Position numbers and translations under genes: made by a program
Assembly (NCBI GenBank): GCA_039815145.1
Contig: JBCBZW010000004.1
Location: 1-64,000, forward strand
DNA from: Pseudomonadota bacterium
Lineage (GTDB): Bacteria > Pseudomonadota > Gammaproteobacteria > Steroidobacterales > JBCBZW01
DNA length: 64,000 bases
Direction: 5' to 3'
Notes under the pieces: generated by a model
Databases searched by the model: none
The model's input: only the letters and a program-made list of their open reading frames with translations
Told to the model about the DNA's origin: nothing
Shown: positions 15,202 through 21,832 of the stretch, piece by piece
Position numbering within the stretch: the first letter of the stretch is position 1
Layout of the letters: the number at the start of each line of letters is the position of its first letter

Positions 15202-15711
15202 ATGAATGCTAAATCGCGTGCCGCGCTACTCATCAGCACCTTGGGGCTCGGCCTCGCCGCCGGACCTTTGTCGGCGCAGCTGGCGGAGTCAGACGATGCG
15301 CCCGCCGCTGACCTGTCCCTGCCCTCGAGCAGCGAAATCGCCGCTCCTGCGCCCCCGGCGCGTCCGCAGGTGCCCTTCGCCTCCGCGGTGGAAGACGAGG
15401 TGGTCGTGTACGGGCGCCGCGATCCTCTGGGACTGCCGGACAGCGTGCGCACGGACATCTGGCGCTCTCAGCGCCGTGAGATGCAGGCGATGCTGCTCGA
15501 ACGCGAACGCATGTCGAACAAGGTCGCCCTCGAGGGCTTCGATGCGCTGCTCGGCACTAGCCTGCGCATCCTGCCCACCTACGATCCGGCCAACGAGCGT
15601 CGCATCGAGTATGGCGTAAACGACAGTGCTCCCGTCGGCCTAATTAATATCTTCGGCGGTAGTTTCGGCAAGAAGAACAACAAGTCCTCGGATCGCCAGC
15701 GAGACTATTGA
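15202..15711 (+). CDS. Exported protein of unknown function
   Basis: A 169-residue protein with a clear signal peptide (SRAALLISTLGLGLAAGPLSA). The mature part starts with an Ala/Pro-rich acidic linker, then EDEVVVYGRRDPLGLPDSVRTDIWRSQRREMQAMLLERERM, a helix rich in Arg and Glu, and ends with a basic KKNNKSSDRQRD tail. I do not recognise a family. GGAGG lies upstream of the ATG. The stop overlaps the next start (TGATG), so it is cotranslated with the DUF885 protein. Confidence 0.65.
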   Translation: MNAKSRAALLISTLGLGLAAGPLSAQLAESDDAPAADLSLPSSSEIAAPAPPARPQVPFASAVEDEVVVYGRRDPLGLPDSVRTDIWRSQRREMQAMLLERERMSNKVALEGFDALLGTSLRILPTYDPANERRIEYGVNDSAPVGLINIFGGSFGKKNNKSSDRQRDY

Positions 15712-17378
15712 TGCCCCATTCCCCGCGCCGGGGCGTCGCAGTGCTGGCGTGGTGCGCTCTGTCGATGGGGATGTTTTCCTCGTGGGTGAGCGCGCAACCC
15801 TCGCCGGCGTTGACCGTTGAGCGAGCCTACGCTGAACTCCTCGAGGTGCATTCCAGCACCCGCGCCCTCATGGAGCCCGTGCGGGACGAGGGCGGCGTGG
15901 CCGATTGGTCTGCCGGCACGATCGCCGCCACCCTGAGCACCCTGCGCGGCCTGCGCCAGCGCCACGGAGCGCTCGCGGAGGTGTCCTGGGATCGCAGCCA
16001 ACGGGTCGATTGGCTGCTCGTGCGCAGCCTGCTGGATGGGCTCGAGTTTCGCCTGCGCGTGTCCCGCCCCTGGGCGCGTGACCCAGGCCACTACGTCGAT
16101 CGGATCCAACGACTCCCCTTCGTACAATTCCCGGCGAGCGGAGAAGACCTGCAGCGTTTGCGCGATGGACTCGAGCGCGTCCCCGCGCTGCTCGCCAGTG
16201 CACGCGCGCAGCTAGATGATCCCGCCGCGGACTACGTCACCCTGGCCCTGTACAACCTCACCCATCACGATGGGGTGGGTCACGGCCAGGCCTATCGGGC
16301 CGAACCACCGGCCGGGGTGATCGGGTGGTACGAGGATTTGCTGGCCCGGGTCGCGGAAGACCAGGCGGAGCTGGTGCCCCAGGCCAGGAAGGCGCGCGAT
16401 GCCGTCGTCCAGTTCCATGCCTGGCTCGATGAGCACAGGGCCGAATGGCAGGGCACGGCGGGGGTCGGGCGAGCGCAGTTCGACTGGTACGTGCGCCAGG
16501 TAAAACTGATCCCCCTCAACACCGATGCCTTGCTGACCCTGGGCGAGCGTGAGTACGAGCGCCTGGTCGCCTACCTCACCCTGGAGCGTCATCGCAATCG
16601 CCACCTGCCGGTGCTGCAACCCGCCCAGAGCGCTGAAGAGTACGAGGCCCGCATTCGGGCGGCCGATGAGCAGATCCGCGCGTTCATCGTCGAGCGCGAC
16701 ATCATCACGGTGCCGCCCTACGTGGGGGAGTTGGCCACCAACGTGCCCTGGATGGTGCGCGCCCAGGGCCGCAACTTCTGGGAGGAGATTCAGTATCGCG
16801 ATCCCCGCCCGGATCATGTGCACGCCGTGATCCCCGGCCACCGCTTCGACTGGCTGTACGCCGCCAATCAGCAGGACCCGATCCGCTCGCCCTACTGGGA
16901 GGGCGCGCGCGTGGAAGGGTGGGCCGTGTACCTGGAGGAGATGTTCCTGAACGCGGGCCTGCTGGACGAGCTGCCGCGCACCCGCGAACTCTTCCACATC
17001 TTCGGCATCAAGCGAGCGGTGCGCGTGCGCGCCGACATCGAGATGCAACAGCATCGCATGAGCGTGGAAGAGGCCACCCGCTACATGGTCGAGCGCGTGC
17101 CTTTTCTCGACGAGAACGTGGCGCGGGTGGACGCGGAGATCTACCTGCGCCGCCCCCCGGGCTACGGCATGGGCTACCTCATCGGCATGGTGCAGATGGA
17201 GGCCCTGCTCGCCGACCGCGCCCGCCAGCTCGGCGATGACTTCGAGCTGAGGGCCTTTCACGATGAGTTTCTGGCGGCAGGTCGCATACCTATATCCCTC
17301 ATTCGCTACGAGATGACGGGGCACGACGACGAGCTGCGTCAGCTCTTACCCTACGTGCCCTTGTTGGCCACCCACTGA
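15711..17378 (+). CDS. DUF885 family protein with altered metal-binding motif
   Basis: A 555-residue exported protein (signal peptide ending near FSSWVSAQ). The C-terminal half carries DUF885 landmarks: VEGWAVYLEEMFLNAGL, RVRADIEMQQHRMSVEEA, PPGYGMGYLIG and FHDEFLAAGRIPISLIRYEM. DUF885 proteins normally have a HExxPGH zinc-peptidase-like motif; here the corresponding residues 371-377 read HAVIPGH, so the catalytic Glu is Ala. The related gene at 52189-54000 keeps HEARPGH. This copy may be inactive, or may have a changed role. It follows the small exported protein with overlapping stop and start, and is followed 7 bases later by the ureohydrolase. Confidence 0.8.
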   Translation: MPHSPRRGVAVLAWCALSMGMFSSWVSAQPSPALTVERAYAELLEVHSSTRALMEPVRDEGGVADWSAGTIAATLSTLRGLRQRHGALAEVSWDRSQRVDWLLVRSLLDGLEFRLRVSRPWARDPGHYVDRIQRLPFVQFPASGEDLQRLRDGLERVPALLASARAQLDDPAADYVTLALYNLTHHDGVGHGQAYRAEPPAGVIGWYEDLLARVAEDQAELVPQARKARDAVVQFHAWLDEHRAEWQGTAGVGRAQFDWYVRQVKLIPLNTDALLTLGEREYERLVAYLTLERHRNRHLPVLQPAQSAEEYEARIRAADEQIRAFIVERDIITVPPYVGELATNVPWMVRAQGRNFWEEIQYRDPRPDHVHAVIPGHRFDWLYAANQQDPIRSPYWEGARVEGWAVYLEEMFLNAGLLDELPRTRELFHIFGIKRAVRVRADIEMQQHRMSVEEATRYMVERVPFLDENVARVDAEIYLRRPPGYGMGYLIGMVQMEALLADRARQLGDDFELRAFHDEFLAAGRIPISLIRYEMTGHDDELRQLLPYVPLLATH

Positions 17379-17385
17379 GGCGGCG

Positions 17386-18348
17386 ATGACCAAGCACCAC
17401 ATCGATCACGCCATCAGCGATGGCCCGCTGCGCGGCGAACGCGTCGAGCCCACCTACTCTGGCATCCAGAGCTTCCTGCGCCGCAAGTACACGCGGGATC
17501 TCACGGGCGCTGAGCTCGCCGTGGTGGGCGTGCCCTTCGATCTTGCCACCACCAATCGCCCCGGCGCCCGCGGTGGACCGGCGGCCGTGCGCGCCGCCTC
17601 GGCGGTGATGGCCTGGGAGCGCCCGTACGGCATGGCCTTCGATCCGCGCACGGCCCTGGCGATGGTCGACTACGGCGACGTGCTCTTCGACTTCGGGCGC
17701 CCGGCGCAGATACAGGCGCGCATCACGGAGCAGTTCGCCAGCATCCTCGATGCCGGCGTCGCCACCCTCGCCCTCGGCGGTGATCACTACGTCACCTATC
17801 CGATCCTGAAGGCGATGCACGCCAAGCACGGCACCCTGTCCCTGCTGCACTTCGATGCCCACAGCGACACCTGGGAGGACGAGCCTGGTCGTGTGCACGA
17901 TCACGGCACCATGTTCCGTCACGCCGTCAACGAGGGTCTGGTCGATCCGGCCCGATCCGTGCAGATCGGCATCCGTACCCACAACCCGGACACCATGGGC
18001 TTTACGATTCTCGATGCCCCCTACGTGCACCGCGAGGGCGTGGCTGCCACCGCTGCGCGAGCGCGCGAGATCCTGCAGGGCCACAGGGTGTACCTGAGCT
18101 TCGACATCGACTGTCTCGACCCGGCCTTTGCGCCCGGCACGGGCACACCCGTGAGCGGCGGCCTCAGCAGCGCCCAGGCGTTGGCGATCCTGCGCGCCCT
18201 GATGGGACTCGATGTGGTGGGTGGCGATGTGGTTGAGGTGGCGCCCGCGTACGACCAAGCGCAGATGACGGCCCTGGCGGCCGCGCACATCGCCTACGAG
18301 TTCACGGGGCTGTACGCGGCTCGCCCCGGCGGGCCTGCGTCGTCGTGA
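17386..18348 (+). CDS. speB: Agmatinase/ureohydrolase family enzyme
   Basis: A 320-residue arginase-superfamily enzyme. The binuclear manganese site is complete: GGDHYVTYP, LLHFDAHSDTWED and YLSFDIDCLDPAFAPGTGTP, and GVPFDLATTNRPGARGGPAAVR is the usual N-terminal substrate region. The length and the WED sequence after DAHSDT fit agmatinase, which turns agmatine into putrescine and urea; related guanidino-acid hydrolases cannot be excluded. The gene is 7 bases behind the DUF885 gene and probably in the same transcript. The symbol is provisional. Confidence 0.88.
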   Translation: MTKHHIDHAISDGPLRGERVEPTYSGIQSFLRRKYTRDLTGAELAVVGVPFDLATTNRPGARGGPAAVRAASAVMAWERPYGMAFDPRTALAMVDYGDVLFDFGRPAQIQARITEQFASILDAGVATLALGGDHYVTYPILKAMHAKHGTLSLLHFDAHSDTWEDEPGRVHDHGTMFRHAVNEGLVDPARSVQIGIRTHNPDTMGFTILDAPYVHREGVAATAARAREILQGHRVYLSFDIDCLDPAFAPGTGTPVSGGLSSAQALAILRALMGLDVVGGDVVEVAPAYDQAQMTALAAAHIAYEFTGLYAARPGGPASS

Positions 18349-18381: not shown

Positions 18382-20295
18382 GTGACGACTGAGGGCGATG
18401 TCGCCCAGGGGCTCATCGACGCCCAGGCCGCGCATCGCTCAGGGCGGCTGGACATCGCTTGCCAACTCTACGGAGCGGTCACGGCAGCGACCTCTGCCAG
18501 CGCTGCGCAGCGCGCCGACGCCCACTATGGCCTGGGCACCGTACGCCTTCAGCAAGGCCAGCTAAGCGAGGCGTTGATTGCCCTCGATGCGGCGCTCGCC
18601 ATCGATGCCCACGTGCCCGAGTACCACTTCAACCGCGCGCTCGTGCTGGAGCGCCTCGCGCGACGCGAAGAGGCTGTCGGCGGGTTCGTGAACGCCGCGC
18701 AGGCCGCAGCCGGCGACGCCGCCGTGCTGCGCCCCGCCGCCGAGCGGCTGCTGCGCTTGAAGGCGTTCCAGGAGACGTCGACCGTGCTCGCCATGGCAGC
18801 GGCGGACAGCACCTTGGACGGCTTGCGCGCGCAGGCCTTAGCCGGTGCCGGCGATTGGGCCGGCGGCCGCGCCCTGGCGAAACGCATGACCCAGGCACAG
18901 CCGCAGGACCCGGAGCGCTGGCGGTGGCGCAGCCAGGCGGCCGCTGCGCTACGCGACTACGACGACGCGGTGAGTGCGCACGAGCGCTATCTCAGCCTGC
19001 TCCGCCCCGCCCGCCCCGAGGACTACCTCGCTCATGCGGATCTACTGCTGTCGGCTCGCCGCCCCAAGCCCGCCCGCGAGGCTCTCGAGACGGCGAAGGC
19101 CCAAGGCGCGGCGGGTATCGAGTGCGACCTGTTGGAAGCGCGAGTCTCGCGGCTGGAGGATGCGCTTGCCGAGGCCTCGAGCGCCTTGAGGCGGGTGCTG
19201 AGCGTGCGCCCGGACGACGGCCGTGCCTGGCAGCTGTTAGCGGATCTGTTGCCCGCGCCTGAGGTAGCAGGCGCGGCGCAAACGCTGGCGACCCTCCTCG
19301 AAGCGCAGCAGGCGTTTCGTCCCGGCCACGAGATCTTGCTTCGCTTCGCTTACGCCCGGTTGGAGGAGCGGGCGGGCGCGATGGACAGGGCCTGGCAGGG
19401 ACTCTCGGCCGCCAACCGCGTCCAGCACGCGGAGCTCCTCGCGCGAGGGGCCGCCTACGACAGCGCCCAGGAGTCTCGGATCAACGGCCAGCGCCTAGCG
19501 CATTACGGAGGTGTCCTCGGCGGCGCTCCTCAGCCGACGCCAACGCCGCCCACCATGGTCTTCATCCTGGGGATGCCACGCAGCGGCACCACCTTGATGG
19601 AGCGTATCCTCGGCGGTCTGCCGGGCGTGCACATGGGCGGGGAAAACGAGGCCATGGCCTTCATCGCCGCCGGGTACGAGCACGCCCTCGCGCGCGGCAC
19701 GCTGCCCGCACCGCAAGCGATGAGTGCCGCCCAATGGGCTGTGTTGGCCGCGGACTACAAGGCGCGCAGCGTGCCTGGGACGCTCTCGCGGGCGCCAACA
19801 GCGCTCACGGACAAGATGCCCCACAACATGCAACACGTGGGCCTCATCGCCGGCATGTTCGGGGCTCGGGCCCGCGTGATCTGGATGCGTCGCCACCCGC
19901 TCGACGTGTGCCTGTCGATCTACTCCCGTCGCTTCCCGGACGGCCACCGCTACGCCTGCCAGCTAGCGGATCTGGCGCATTTCTACGCCGAGAGTGAGCG
20001 GCTCATGGAAGGTTGGAAAAGCGCTTTCCCCTCGCTGGTACACGAGGTGCGCTACGAAGCCCTGGCAGGCGATCCCGAGCCCCACGCGCGAGCGGCGATC
20101 GAGCACGCCGGGCTGGCGTGGGACCCGGCGTGCCTGGATACATCGACCCGTCGCGAAGCCGCCTTCACCTTCAGCGAGTTGCAGGTGCGCGAGGCGATCA
20201 GTGCGCGCCACGTGCATCGCCACCAGGCTTGGGGCTCGCTGCTCGATCCCCTGCGCGACGCGCTTCGCGATGCGGGCGTGACGTGGGACGAGTGA
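18382..20295 (+). CDS. TPR-sulfotransferase
   Basis: A 637-residue cytoplasmic protein. The N-terminal two-thirds are tetratricopeptide-like helical repeats (for example ADAHYGLGTVRLQQGQLSEA and PEYHFNRALVLERLARREEA). The C-terminal part (about residues 390-620) is a sulfotransferase domain: FILGMPRSGTTLMERIL is the 5'-PAPS loop, LTDKMPHN and RARVIWMRRHPLDVCLSIYS the 3'-phosphate region. The layout matches the bacterial TPR-sulfotransferases related to tyrosylprotein sulfotransferases; the acceptor is unknown. Start GTG 18382 lacks a strong ribosome-binding site. Its stop overlaps the start of the next exported protein. Confidence 0.9.
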   Translation: MTTEGDVAQGLIDAQAAHRSGRLDIACQLYGAVTAATSASAAQRADAHYGLGTVRLQQGQLSEALIALDAALAIDAHVPEYHFNRALVLERLARREEAVGGFVNAAQAAAGDAAVLRPAAERLLRLKAFQETSTVLAMAAADSTLDGLRAQALAGAGDWAGGRALAKRMTQAQPQDPERWRWRSQAAAALRDYDDAVSAHERYLSLLRPARPEDYLAHADLLLSARRPKPAREALETAKAQGAAGIECDLLEARVSRLEDALAEASSALRRVLSVRPDDGRAWQLLADLLPAPEVAGAAQTLATLLEAQQAFRPGHEILLRFAYARLEERAGAMDRAWQGLSAANRVQHAELLARGAAYDSAQESRINGQRLAHYGGVLGGAPQPTPTPPTMVFILGMPRSGTTLMERILGGLPGVHMGGENEAMAFIAAGYEHALARGTLPAPQAMSAAQWAVLAADYKARSVPGTLSRAPTALTDKMPHNMQHVGLIAGMFGARARVIWMRRHPLDVCLSIYSRRFPDGHRYACQLADLAHFYAESERLMEGWKSAFPSLVHEVRYEALAGDPEPHARAAIEHAGLAWDPACLDTSTRREAAFTFSELQVREAISARHVHRHQAWGSLLDPLRDALRDAGVTWDE

Positions 20296-20933
20296 GCGCT
20301 TTGGCGCGTCTATTGGCTCACGCCGCCTCTGCCGCCGCCGGCCTGTTGTTATTCCCCGTGATAGGTGGCACGGCACCGTGCGCGTGCGATTGGGAGCAGG
20401 CCTTGGATGCGTTGGGCACCGCGCGGATAATCGTCGAGGGTAAGGTCCAGTCAGCGCAGCGCAGAGACGACGGCACGATCGAGTTCACCTTGGCGGTGGA
20501 GCGGGTGCTGCGCGGCGAGGCGGTCGACACCTTGTCGCTCGTCGCTATGGCGCCGGAAGACTGCGGCGCGCCGGTACGCCTGGCGTACGGCGACACCTAC
20601 TTCCTGCGCGAGCCCCAAGCCACACTCACCACGTGTGACTCCCTGCGTCTGATCCAGGAGCAGGAGGGTGGCCGGGCGTACCGCCTGAACGAGGCGTTGG
20701 ATCTCGTGACCTCTCGGAAGCCTTTCCCGGGCGACGAGCTGAAGCAACGCGTAGAGCGTACCTTGCGCAGCCTCGATCCGGCCGAGCTTCGCGAGTTCTT
20801 CGACATCGTTGACCGACTCGACCCTGCCTACGGGGTACGAGCGGGCGCGGACGGTGCCTTCAGCTACCGCGATCTTCGCGTACGCCTCAGCCCCGAAGGT
20901 ACCTACCTGGCGCTGGAGGAGGTGTCCGAATGA
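20292..20933 (+). CDS. Exported Cys-x-Cys protein, possibly NTR/TIMP-like
   Basis: A 213-residue protein from GTG 20292, which overlaps the TPR-sulfotransferase stop. A signal peptide (RLLAHAASAAAGLLLFPVIGG) ends just before CACDWEQALDALGTA. The mature protein starts with Cys-Ala-Cys and continues with ARIIVEGKV, GTIEFTLAVERVLRGE, EDCG, YGDTYFL and TTCDS. That order of Cys-x-Cys start, EGKV strand, hydrophobic FTLAVERVLRG strand and later Cys residues is like the netrin/TIMP (NTR) fold and like the next gene. The similarity is by eye only. Function unknown. Confidence 0.6.
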   Translation: MSALARLLAHAASAAAGLLLFPVIGGTAPCACDWEQALDALGTARIIVEGKVQSAQRRDDGTIEFTLAVERVLRGEAVDTLSLVAMAPEDCGAPVRLAYGDTYFLREPQATLTTCDSLRLIQEQEGGRAYRLNEALDLVTSRKPFPGDELKQRVERTLRSLDPAELREFFDIVDRLDPAYGVRAGADGAFSYRDLRVRLSPEGTYLALEEVSE

Positions 20934-21832
20934 GGACGAGGGTAGGCGCGCTGTCGCCGCTTGCACTCCTTCTGCTAGGGATGCTCGCGGCGCCCGCCTG
21001 GGGCTGTTCGTGTGCGGCGACGTCGCTGGCGGGGATCTACGAGCGGGCGGACAACGTGTTTCGCGCACGTATCACGGGCGGGGAGATGCTGCCTCCTGGC
21101 GAGCGCTTTCGCGACGCCGTGCTGATGCGCTTCGAGTTGATCGATCGCTTCAAAGGGACATTGCCCTTCCAAGCCCTGCAAAGCGGTGGCTTCGGCGGTG
21201 CCTGTGGCGTCTCTCTGCAGGTCGGCATGGAGTTTCTGGTGTTCGTCGATGACGACGGTTGGGTCAACACCTGTGCCGGCACGCAGGCGCTTGGCGGCGA
21301 GTACGGGCGCTACGGCCGCATGTCGTTGGCGTTGTTGGAACGCTATCGGCGCGGTGAGCTCGCCGAGCTGCAAGATCCTTGGCTCTTCGCCACCTACGGG
21401 GATCGTTGCCTGCTGCGAACGCATGTGGACTTTCCAGCCTTTTCGACGCCCGCGGAGTTGGCGATCAGCTTCCGTCCTGGGCCACGGCAGGAGTCGCCAG
21501 GGCGCGCGCAGCTGGCGCTCTCGCTGCCGACGCAGCGTGAAGACCCGGCGGCGGGGCCACTCCTACTCCAGGTGGGTAGCGCCCAGTGGTCCGCGCCGTG
21601 GACCGCCGCAGCCAGTCGGCGGGGCTCCGGTGGCTACGCCCTCGAGGGGGATGCGGTGCTGGCCTTGGTCGAGTCCTTGGCGCAGTCCGCGGCTTTGCAC
21701 CTGCGCTTTGAGGACCCGCAGCACGGCCCGATCGCGCGCGAGCTATGGACGGGGCACGCGCGGGAGTCCTCGGCGCAATTCAGCGCCTGCGTCGGTCACC
21801 TCCGGGAGCGAACGGCCGCGGAGAGGCGCTAG
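20930..21832 (+). CDS. Exported Cys-x-Cys protein, NTR/TIMP-like N-terminal domain
   Basis: A 300-residue protein. The signal peptide (LSPLALLLLGMLAAPAWG) is followed directly by CSCAATSLAGIYERADNVFRA, then MRFELIDRFKGTLPFQ, GGACGVSLQVGMEFLVFVDDDG and NTCAGTQAL. This order (Cys-x-Cys start, VFRARI strand, FKG strand, ACG, GxxFLVF, final Cys) is that of the NTR/TIMP-like domain of secreted bacterial proteins. The C-terminal half is not recognised. The ATG overlaps the stop of the preceding related gene by ATGA. With the sulfotransferase this forms a three-gene overlapping operon. Confidence 0.65.
   Translation: MRTRVGALSPLALLLLGMLAAPAWGCSCAATSLAGIYERADNVFRARITGGEMLPPGERFRDAVLMRFELIDRFKGTLPFQALQSGGFGGACGVSLQVGMEFLVFVDDDGWVNTCAGTQALGGEYGRYGRMSLALLERYRRGELAELQDPWLFATYGDRCLLRTHVDFPAFSTPAELAISFRPGPRQESPGRAQLALSLPTQREDPAAGPLLLQVGSAQWSAPWTAAASRRGSGGYALEGDAVLALVESLAQSAALHLRFEDPQHGPIARELWTGHARESSAQFSACVGHLRERTAAERR

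What the first reader, a model, noticed from the sequence alone, without database searches (positions are those of the whole stretch)
20292..21832. Sulfotransferase followed by two overlapping secreted Cys-x-Cys proteins
Both mature proteins appear to start at Cys-x-Cys right after signal cleavage, as NTR/TIMP-type domains do, and both overlap their upstream neighbours by 4 bases. A TPR-sulfotransferase encoded in the same transcript could modify a secreted product. I know of no described operon like this.
Basis: inference. Interest (0 to 1): 0.5.

Follow-up and report, generated by a model that had tools for sequence, protein, structure and literature searches.

The report
Paired bacterial TIMP-like exported proteins
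Two neighbouring bacterial genes encode exported proteins related to animal metalloproteinase inhibitors (TIMPs), one of them joined to a domain resembling part of the flagellar protein MotY; the gene pair recurs in related bacteria, but the sulfotransferase beside it does not.

Summary
In detail: a TPR-sulfotransferase gene is followed by two exported Cys-x-Cys proteins, A and B, each overlapping its upstream neighbour by 4 bases. The NTR/TIMP inference is well supported for B. A 16-row profile of B and bacterial relatives finds TIMPs as its best PDB matches (TIMP-2, E 1.6e-9), first Cys on residue 1 of mature TIMP; the B model matches N-TIMP-3 (Z 8.8); six divergent B relatives lose cysteines in exactly the TIMP disulfide pairs. 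A is the same domain by profile comparison; its own model is weak. A-B order occurs at 7 loci in 6 genomes (window included), down to 20% (A) and 25% (B) identity. The sulfotransferase adjoins it only in the window and one same-genus genome, so the modification idea lacks support. Best reading: an envelope-associated NTR pair in which B may inhibit a metalloprotease in TIMP fashion and A, whose first Cys is probably not N-terminal, is its partner. Target unknown; inhibition inferred. A Listeria TIMP-like lipoprotein is published; the pair and the MotY-type fusion were not met in print.

The parts
18382..20295 (+). TPR-sulfotransferase (upstream neighbour; not part of the conserved unit)
   Evidence: Pfam Sulfotransfer_3 E 5e-34 and TPR; match at E<=1e-60 in 2 of 58 genomes, own and G001
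20292..20933 (+). gene A, exported NTR-type protein, 213 aa, GTG start, 4-base overlap with the sulfotransferase
20379..20678 (+). A: NTR-type domain, from Cys30, with C30/C32/C91/C115
   Evidence: hhalign to the B/standalone NTR profile prob 98.4, E 8.7e-15; weak fold matches
20679..20930 (+). A: C-terminal helical region plus beta hairpin, unassigned
   Evidence: model secondary structure; no convincing Pfam family in 7 A proteins (best E 0.00098, DUF4131)
20915..20922 (+). Shine-Dalgarno-like GGAGGAGG before B, inside the end of A
   Evidence: sequence
20930..21832 (+). gene B, exported two-domain protein, 300 aa, 4-base overlap with A
20930..21004 (+). B: signal peptide, likely ending just before Cys26
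   Evidence: (-3,-1) rule; alternative site two residues earlier
21005..21361 (+). B: NTR/TIMP-like domain with C26/C28/C92/C115
   Evidence: PDB profile TIMP-2 E 1.6e-9; VIA Z 8.8 to N-TIMP-3
21362..21829 (+). B: domain like the MotY N-terminal domain, with W151, C160 and C287
   Evidence: hhalign prob 95, E 2.9e-8; VIA Z 10.7 to MotY 2zf8

Best explanation
A and B are a co-inherited pair of exported NTR-family proteins (the domain of animal TIMPs), translated in tandem. Shown by computation: the shared four-cysteine NTR domain, the A-B gene order, and a second domain in B homologous to the MotY N-terminal domain. Inferred: after export and disulfide formation B begins at Cys1, whose free amine and carbonyl, followed by Ser2, can chelate the zinc of a metalloprotease as TIMPs do, while the MotY-N-like domain docks B to an envelope partner. 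A probably keeps residues before its Cys1, so it is less likely to chelate zinc the same way and is more likely the partner, regulator or specificity subunit of B. The sulfotransferase is a neighbour seen only in this genus.
For: NTR homology: profile A9 (B plus standalone bacterial domains, 16 rows) gives 17 PDB matches at E<=10, the first 15 all TIMPs, best TIMP-2 1.6e-9, aligned from TIMP residue 1; four B sequences alone give TIMP-2 at 3.3e-4. Fold: B residues 1-123 match N-TIMP-3 Z 8.8 (106 aligned, 3.2 A) and other NTR domains. Cysteines: 4 of 4 kept in 10 of 10 CxC B proteins; in the 6 B relatives without CxC the losses fall in exact TIMP disulfide pairs (C26 with C92 in 2, C28 with C115 in 4; the 4 look closely related). 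A: hhalign to A9 prob 98.4, E 8.7e-15. MotY-N: hhalign prob 95.2, E 2.9e-8 over 131 columns, reversed control 0.6; VIA Z 10.7 to MotY, 12.2 to the LPHT ring; its W and two Cys invariant in 16 of 16. Pairing: A directly upstream of B at 7 loci in 6 genomes, in differing surroundings; A and B identities co-vary, r 0.99 over 21 non-independent pairs. Cys1: exact site possible in 10 of 10 CxC B proteins against 1 of 7 A proteins; residue 2 Ser in 9 of these 10. TIMP mechanism, and loss of MMP inhibition by one added N-terminal residue: PMC7916773, PMC6349231 (passages). Metzincin link in the wider family: a distant NTR-like gene abuts a matrixin in L027; Listeria pairs a metzincin with a TIMP-like lipoprotein (PMC8235301, passages).
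Against: No metzincin motif (HExxHxxGxxH/D) in the 64 kb window or in the stretches held around A-B pairs (L016-L018; L104-L106). Many NTR domains are not known as protease inhibitors (complement C345C, agrin NtA, PCOLCE; recalled). The one NTR-like protein found beside a matrixin lacks the N-terminal CxC. Ala-extended TIMP-3 still inhibits ADAM17 and aggrecanases, so an extension in A does not exclude inhibition. 8 of 10 CxC B proteins have a possible earlier cleavage site. The 7-row A profile found no TIMP in the PDB and the 4-row one only at E 0.44; the B C-terminal profile did not find MotY there. Six of 16 B-type proteins lack CxC. The A model has pLDDT 61.6.
Confidence: 0.42

Rival explanations
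1. A and B are envelope assembly or adhesion proteins: the NTR domains act as binding modules (as in complement, agrin or PCOLCE), and the MotY-N-like domain docks to a ring or peptidoglycan-associated complex. No protease is involved.
For: The MotY N-terminal domain associates with the flagellar basal body (PMC3872333, passage); the genome has FlgI but no Pfam MotY_N match; the best Z values for the C-terminal domain are flagellar ring proteins; another NTR architecture of the order carries an SH3_3-like region (below cut-off in L014, L095 and L102); no metzincin nearby.
Against: A possible cleavage site exactly at Cys1, and Ser2, are retained in B as in inhibitory TIMPs, which pure binding modules do not need; none of the 14 neighbours of the other 5 pairs that I scanned with Pfam (part of the neighbours only) is a flagellar family.
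Confidence: 0.33
2. The sulfotransferase, A and B form one functional unit in which the sulfotransferase modifies A or B before export.
For: Co-directional with 4-base overlaps in the window and in G001.
Against: 5 of 7 A-B pairs, the paralogous pair of the same genome among them, have no tblastn match to it in the stretches held; the flanking genes are collinear too between the two same-genus genomes, so adjacency says little; one Tyr of A (Y205) and none of B has 3 or more acidic residues within 5 positions.
Confidence: 0.06
3. B is a pseudo-inhibitor, NTR-derived, with A and B serving as a competition factor and its immunity protein.
For: One pair lies between an HTH_17 gene and a phage-type integrase (L016); A diverges faster than B (mean identity 33 against 39).
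Against: No toxin family was found in A or B; the four NTR cysteines stay invariant in 7 of 7 A and 10 of 10 CxC B proteins.
Confidence: 0.1

Closest known systems
Animal TIMPs, N-terminal (NTR) domain (TIMP-2 1br9, N-TIMP-3 3cki)
   Same: CxC at the mature N-terminus, two later Cys at matching places (CGVSLQVG in B against CGVSLDVG in TIMP-2), OB-type fold
   Different: Third disulfide of the TIMP N-domain (recalled) and the TIMP C-terminal domain absent; different second domain; bacterial; inhibition untested
Listeria Tim (TIMP-like lipoprotein paired with the metzincin Mtz), PMC8235301
   Same: Bacterial exported TIMP-like protein in a two-gene unit
   Different: Tim is a lipoprotein, TIMP-like by structure and not by sequence according to the paper, and pairs with a protease; A-B pairs two NTR proteins with no metzincin beside it. 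Tim was not compared by sequence here
MotY N-terminal domain (PF18393; 2zf8) and the LPHT ring (8z5n)
   Same: Fold, and the W and two Cys positions of B's C-terminal domain
   Different: No OmpA-like C-terminal domain; an NTR domain in front; below Pfam detection
Bartonella IalB (3dtd, PF06776)
   Same: Fold similarity to B's C-terminal domain (Z 10.3)
   Different: No sequence-profile support (hhalign probability 0.14-0.25)
Pseudomonas alkaline protease inhibitor
   Same: Bacterial inhibitor of a metzincin acting by a zinc-NH2 bond (cited title and passage in PMC8235301)
   Different: Not TIMP-like in structure according to the same passage; not compared here

Membership tests
NTR/TIMP-like domain (B) | Sequence homology to TIMP N-domain | tested here: met
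   TIMP-2 E 1.6e-9 with A9, 3.3e-4 with four B sequences
NTR/TIMP-like domain (B) | NTR/OB fold | tested here: met
   VIA Z 8.8 to N-TIMP-3, 106 residues, 3.2 A; model pLDDT 74.7
NTR/TIMP-like domain (B) | Cys pattern C1, C3, C70, C99 of TIMP with pairs 1-70 and 3-99 | tested here: met
   4 of 4 in 10 of 10 CxC B proteins; paired losses in 6 of 6 others; aligned to TIMP. The 3-99 pairing in TIMP is recalled
NTR/TIMP-like domain (B) | Third disulfide of full TIMP N-domain (C13-C124; recalled) | tested here: not met
   mature B has C26, C28, C92, C115, C160, C287 only; C160 and C287 lie in the second domain
NTR domain (A) | Homology to the bacterial NTR domains | tested here: met
   hhalign prob 98.4, E 8.7e-15
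NTR domain (A) | NTR fold by its own model | tested here: inconclusive
   pLDDT 61.6; Foldseek rows 1-11 are C3/C5, PCOLCE NTR or TIMP-2 entries but E 0.23 at best; VIA Z up to 4.0
TIMP (functional inhibitor) | Mature N-terminus exactly at Cys1 | tested here: inconclusive
   B: possible in 10 of 10 CxC proteins, with earlier alternatives in 8; A: 1 of 7; rule-based only
TIMP (functional inhibitor) | Inhibition of metalloproteases | not testable with these tools
   needs protein
TIMP Pfam PF00965 | Score above Pfam cut-off | tested here: not met
   no match for B; 4 of 20 relatives weakly, best E 0.0041
MotY_N | Sequence-profile homology | tested here: met
   hhalign prob 95.2, E 2.9e-8 against 10 MotY proteins (of 11 loci), reversed 0.6
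MotY_N | Pfam MotY_N match | tested here: not met
   0 of 16 at E<=1; no MotY in the PDB profile search either
IalB | Sequence-profile homology | tested here: not met
   hhalign probability 0.14-0.25; fold similarity only

The most novel reading that the evidence does not exclude
Proteobacteria have true homologs of TIMPs that keep the free Cys1 zinc-binding wedge: an envelope-docked inhibitor (B, NTR plus MotY-N-like) working with a second, N-terminally extended NTR partner (A) to control an endogenous or foreign metzincin, making the TIMP mechanism older than animals or shared with bacteria by transfer.
Probability: 0.27. Interest if true: 0.75.

Novelty: new variant of a known kind. Interest (0 to 1): 0.52.

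Why it matters
Sequence-level TIMP relatives in bacteria would make the origin of a central animal protease-control domain testable, and would point to exported bacterial proteins, possibly protease inhibitors, that score below the cut-off of the present Pfam TIMP model. The NTR to MotY-N fusion also shows a MotY-N-like domain outside MotY itself. If the domains only bind partners, the find is still a conserved, unannotated two-gene envelope module.

Tried and rejected
Sulfotransferase as part of the system: rejected, since the stretches held around 5 of 7 A-B pairs have no match to it. Lipoprotein reading of B: the residues before Cys are A-W-G, A-L-A, S-F-A and the like, more typical of signal peptidase I than of a lipobox (rule recalled; sequences). 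IalB membership of B's C-terminal domain: suggested by Foldseek, no profile support. Viral, plasmid and phage relatives: no stretch encoding a relative in viral contigs, none for B in plasmids or phages, none for four relatives in plasmids. The scan of the 84,980-species collection found 1 locus for B, limited by its two short peptide patterns. Pfam TIMP over 58 genomes found nothing, but its controls rang nowhere, so this is no evidence of absence. Metzincin in the window: none by motif. Promoter and terminator consensus scans: 0 sites, uninformative.

Rows dropped before counts: the 20 rows of alignment A3 were chosen for a CxC near the N-terminus, so '20 of 20' for its first two Cys is by choice; left out were L011 (near-duplicate of L010), L025, L026 (no fourth Cys in its open frame), and L027 and L030 (no CxC). 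The 16 B-type proteins were picked by eye; L081 (interrupted frame) was dropped. Of the 41 places, 30 had loci and were examined; of the other 11, 4 were already held (own C166, C93, C7 and A of G055), one lies in L089, and 6 (three of G1055, one each of G892, G001 contig C7, G960) were not examined.

Papers: searches that bear on bacterial TIMP/NTR are (listings, some capped); the other three were on MotY, TIMP N-termini and sulfotransferases. In these listings only PMC8235301 describes a bacterial TIMP-like protein. Three TIMP papers searched for 'bacteri' gave no such mention (PMC9409782, PMC3679795, PMC10755359).
Full report
What is there. The window belongs to a 6.0 Mb assembly in 295 contigs. 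It is most likely a gammaproteobacterium: a genome of the same order, G055, has a contig of exactly the length of JAOTYE010000002.1, a Gammaproteobacteria MAG, with the same gene pair. Genes run on the + strand: DUF885 protein (15708-17378), agmatinase (17386-18348), TPR-sulfotransferase (18382-20295), A (20292-20933), B (20930-21832). The two 4-base overlaps are real. In the same-genus genome G001 they recur as TTGA (sulfotransferase to A) and GTGA (A to B), and the paralogous pair on contig C166 can use GTGA for A to B. In G055 and G813 the A-B gap is one base.

Homology of A and B. Single-sequence searches found no PDB match and no convincing Pfam or NCBIfam family. A search of 59 genomes gave the A-B pair in G001 and G055, a second A-B pair in the same genome, and shorter standalone relatives. 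The A and B profiles hit the same two standalone genes in a class scan of 369 genomes, and hhalign gives prob 98.0, E 2.1e-13 between the 4-row A domain and the 16-row B/standalone domain, 98.4 and 8.7e-15 with 7 A rows. C26, C28, C92 and C115 of B are invariant in the 20 rows of A3; the first two by choice of rows, the last two not.

Disulfide signature. Among 16 B-type proteins, 10 keep all four NTR cysteines. The other 6 lose them in pairs: own C93 and G019 lack the C26 and C92 positions, G854 (two copies), G858 and G825 lack C28 and C115. These are the pairs that TIMP disulfides 1-70 and 3-99 would join (1-70 stated in PMC3679795, passage; 3-99 recalled). The last four look closely related, so this may be two or three events.

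Relation to TIMP. The 20-row full alignment returned 15 PDB sequences at E<=10, all TIMPs, best TIMP-2 7.8e-8, with profile Cys on TIMP residue 1. The 16-row domain profile returned 17, the first 15 TIMPs and two unrelated at E 1 and 1.5; best 1.6e-9. The four B sequences alone returned 8, the first 4 TIMP-2 (best 3.3e-4), the rest unrelated from E 0.069. Against this, A alone gave TIMP-3 only at 0.44 with 4 rows and no TIMP with 7 rows. Pfam TIMP matched 4 of 20 members weakly.

Structure. Folding was limited to window proteins and L036, so alignments held four rows. B: pLDDT 74.7, pTM 0.64. A: pLDDT 61.6, pTM 0.48. For B, Foldseek ranked IalB first (E 9.4e-5) and TIMP-2 fifth (1.9e-4). VIA-align gave two domains: residues 1-123 with N-TIMP-3 Z 8.8, TIMP-1, meteorin NTR and complement C3b NTR; residues 122-271 with the LPHT ring Z 12.2 (131 aligned, 2.6 A) and MotY Z 10.7 (127, 2.8 A); IalB Z 10.3 (135, 3.8 A) over 104-265. 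The tool warns that Z under 8 can be a common arrangement. For A the best Foldseek E was 0.23, rows 1-11 being complement C3/C5, PCOLCE NTR and TIMP-2 entries; VIA Z was at most 4.0, which does not stand out.

Second domain of B. With 10 MotY proteins (of 11 loci), hhalign of the B C-terminal domain gave prob 95.8 (6 rows), 94.8 (5) and 87.9 (4), 95.2 with 16 rows and 79.8 with the 7 paired B proteins. Controls (reversed profiles, IalB, NTR, SH3-type) stayed at or below 0.65. These E-values are for one comparison each. The domain's W, first Cys and last Cys are invariant in 16 of 16 and align with MotY. Pfam and PDB sequence searches miss it. The same genome has FlgI but no MotY_N match.

Conservation of the pair. 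An order scan of 396 genomes matched 31. I examined the 30 loci it returned. A stands directly upstream of B in own C4 (the window), own C166, G001, G055, G813, G1049 and G973: 7 loci, 6 genomes. G019 has an eroded A-like reading frame before a B that lacks CxC. Of the 16 B-type proteins, 10 keep CxC (7 of them with A) and 6 do not; apart from G019 no second NTR frame was found beside them, other than the tandem of G854, in the short stretches held. Neighbours differ between loci: peptidase S41, CDGSH and NYN proteins, a helicase, MFS transporter, dehydrogenase, while A-B order stays. A and B identities co-vary (r 0.99 over 21 pairs that are not independent).

The sulfotransferase. At E<=1e-60 it matches 2 of 58 genomes, own and G001 (at most 21 candidates scored per genome), with agmatinase and DUF885 collinear too. 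tblastn at E<=1 finds it in none of the five stretches around the other pairs. The modification hypothesis is left without support, though not excluded for this genus.

Mature ends and mechanism. By a broad (-3,-1) rule, cleavage exactly before Cys1 is possible in 10 of 10 CxC B proteins and in 1 of 7 A proteins; 6 of 7 A proteins read AxA followed by 1-4 residues such as Q-D-T-P before CxC, and the window A has only a poorer site. In TIMP-3, Cys1 coordinates the catalytic zinc and residue 2 enters the S1' pocket; an added Ala abolishes MMP inhibition but keeps ADAM17 and aggrecanase inhibition (PMC7916773, PMC6349231, passages). Helminth TIMPs with Lys, Arg or Gln at position 2 are suggested to have other functions (PMC3679795, passages). 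B has Ser2 in 9 of 10. I therefore propose that B is the inhibitor and A its partner; this step is inference. The wider family offers one pointer to metzincins: in L027 a distant NTR-like protein (hhalign prob 94.4, E 9e-8, reversed at most 0.16) abuts a matrixin (PF00413 E 9e-8), though it lacks CxC. It was the weakest hit (E 8.8e-4) of a 369-genome scan.

Novelty. PMC8235301 (abstract, outline and passages seen) describes a Listeria metzincin and TIMP-like lipoprotein pair, and its authors had found no earlier record of bacterial TIMP-like proteins. The A-B pair, sequence-level TIMP homology in bacteria and the NTR to MotY-N fusion were not met in seven relevant searches of an open-access library (listings only), which misses most subscription journals. 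That InterPro groups bacterial proteins under a TIMP-like superfamily is my recollection, not a result.

Noticed in passing
L027 2-1896 (G306:C49): A distant NTR-like exported protein without CxC is immediately followed by a matrixin-type metzincin (HELGHLFGLDH), a possible protease-inhibitor pair in Proteobacteria.
   Followed up: partly
L014, L031, L095, L098-L103: A second conserved architecture: NTR-type domain (CRC start) followed by a region that matches SH3_3 below its cut-off in L014, L095 and L102 (not in L031, L101, L103), about 350 aa, most ending like WFYSRGC; in several genera of the order and in the window's own genome (contig C7).
   Followed up: partly
L016 6192-11075 (G055): The A-B pair of G055, with a HEAT-repeat protein behind it, lies between an HTH_17 gene and a phage-type integrase, so the pair may travel on a mobile island.
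   Followed up: partly
window 15708-17378: DUF885 protein upstream reads HAVIPGH where I recall HExxPGH in active relatives; the same letters occur in G001. Possibly catalytically changed.
   Followed up: no
L030 674-1573 (own genome, contig C93): A further B-type protein of the same genome keeps the MotY-N-like domain but has lost the first and third NTR Cys together; G019 shows the same loss, and G854, G858 and G825 the complementary pair.
   Followed up: partly
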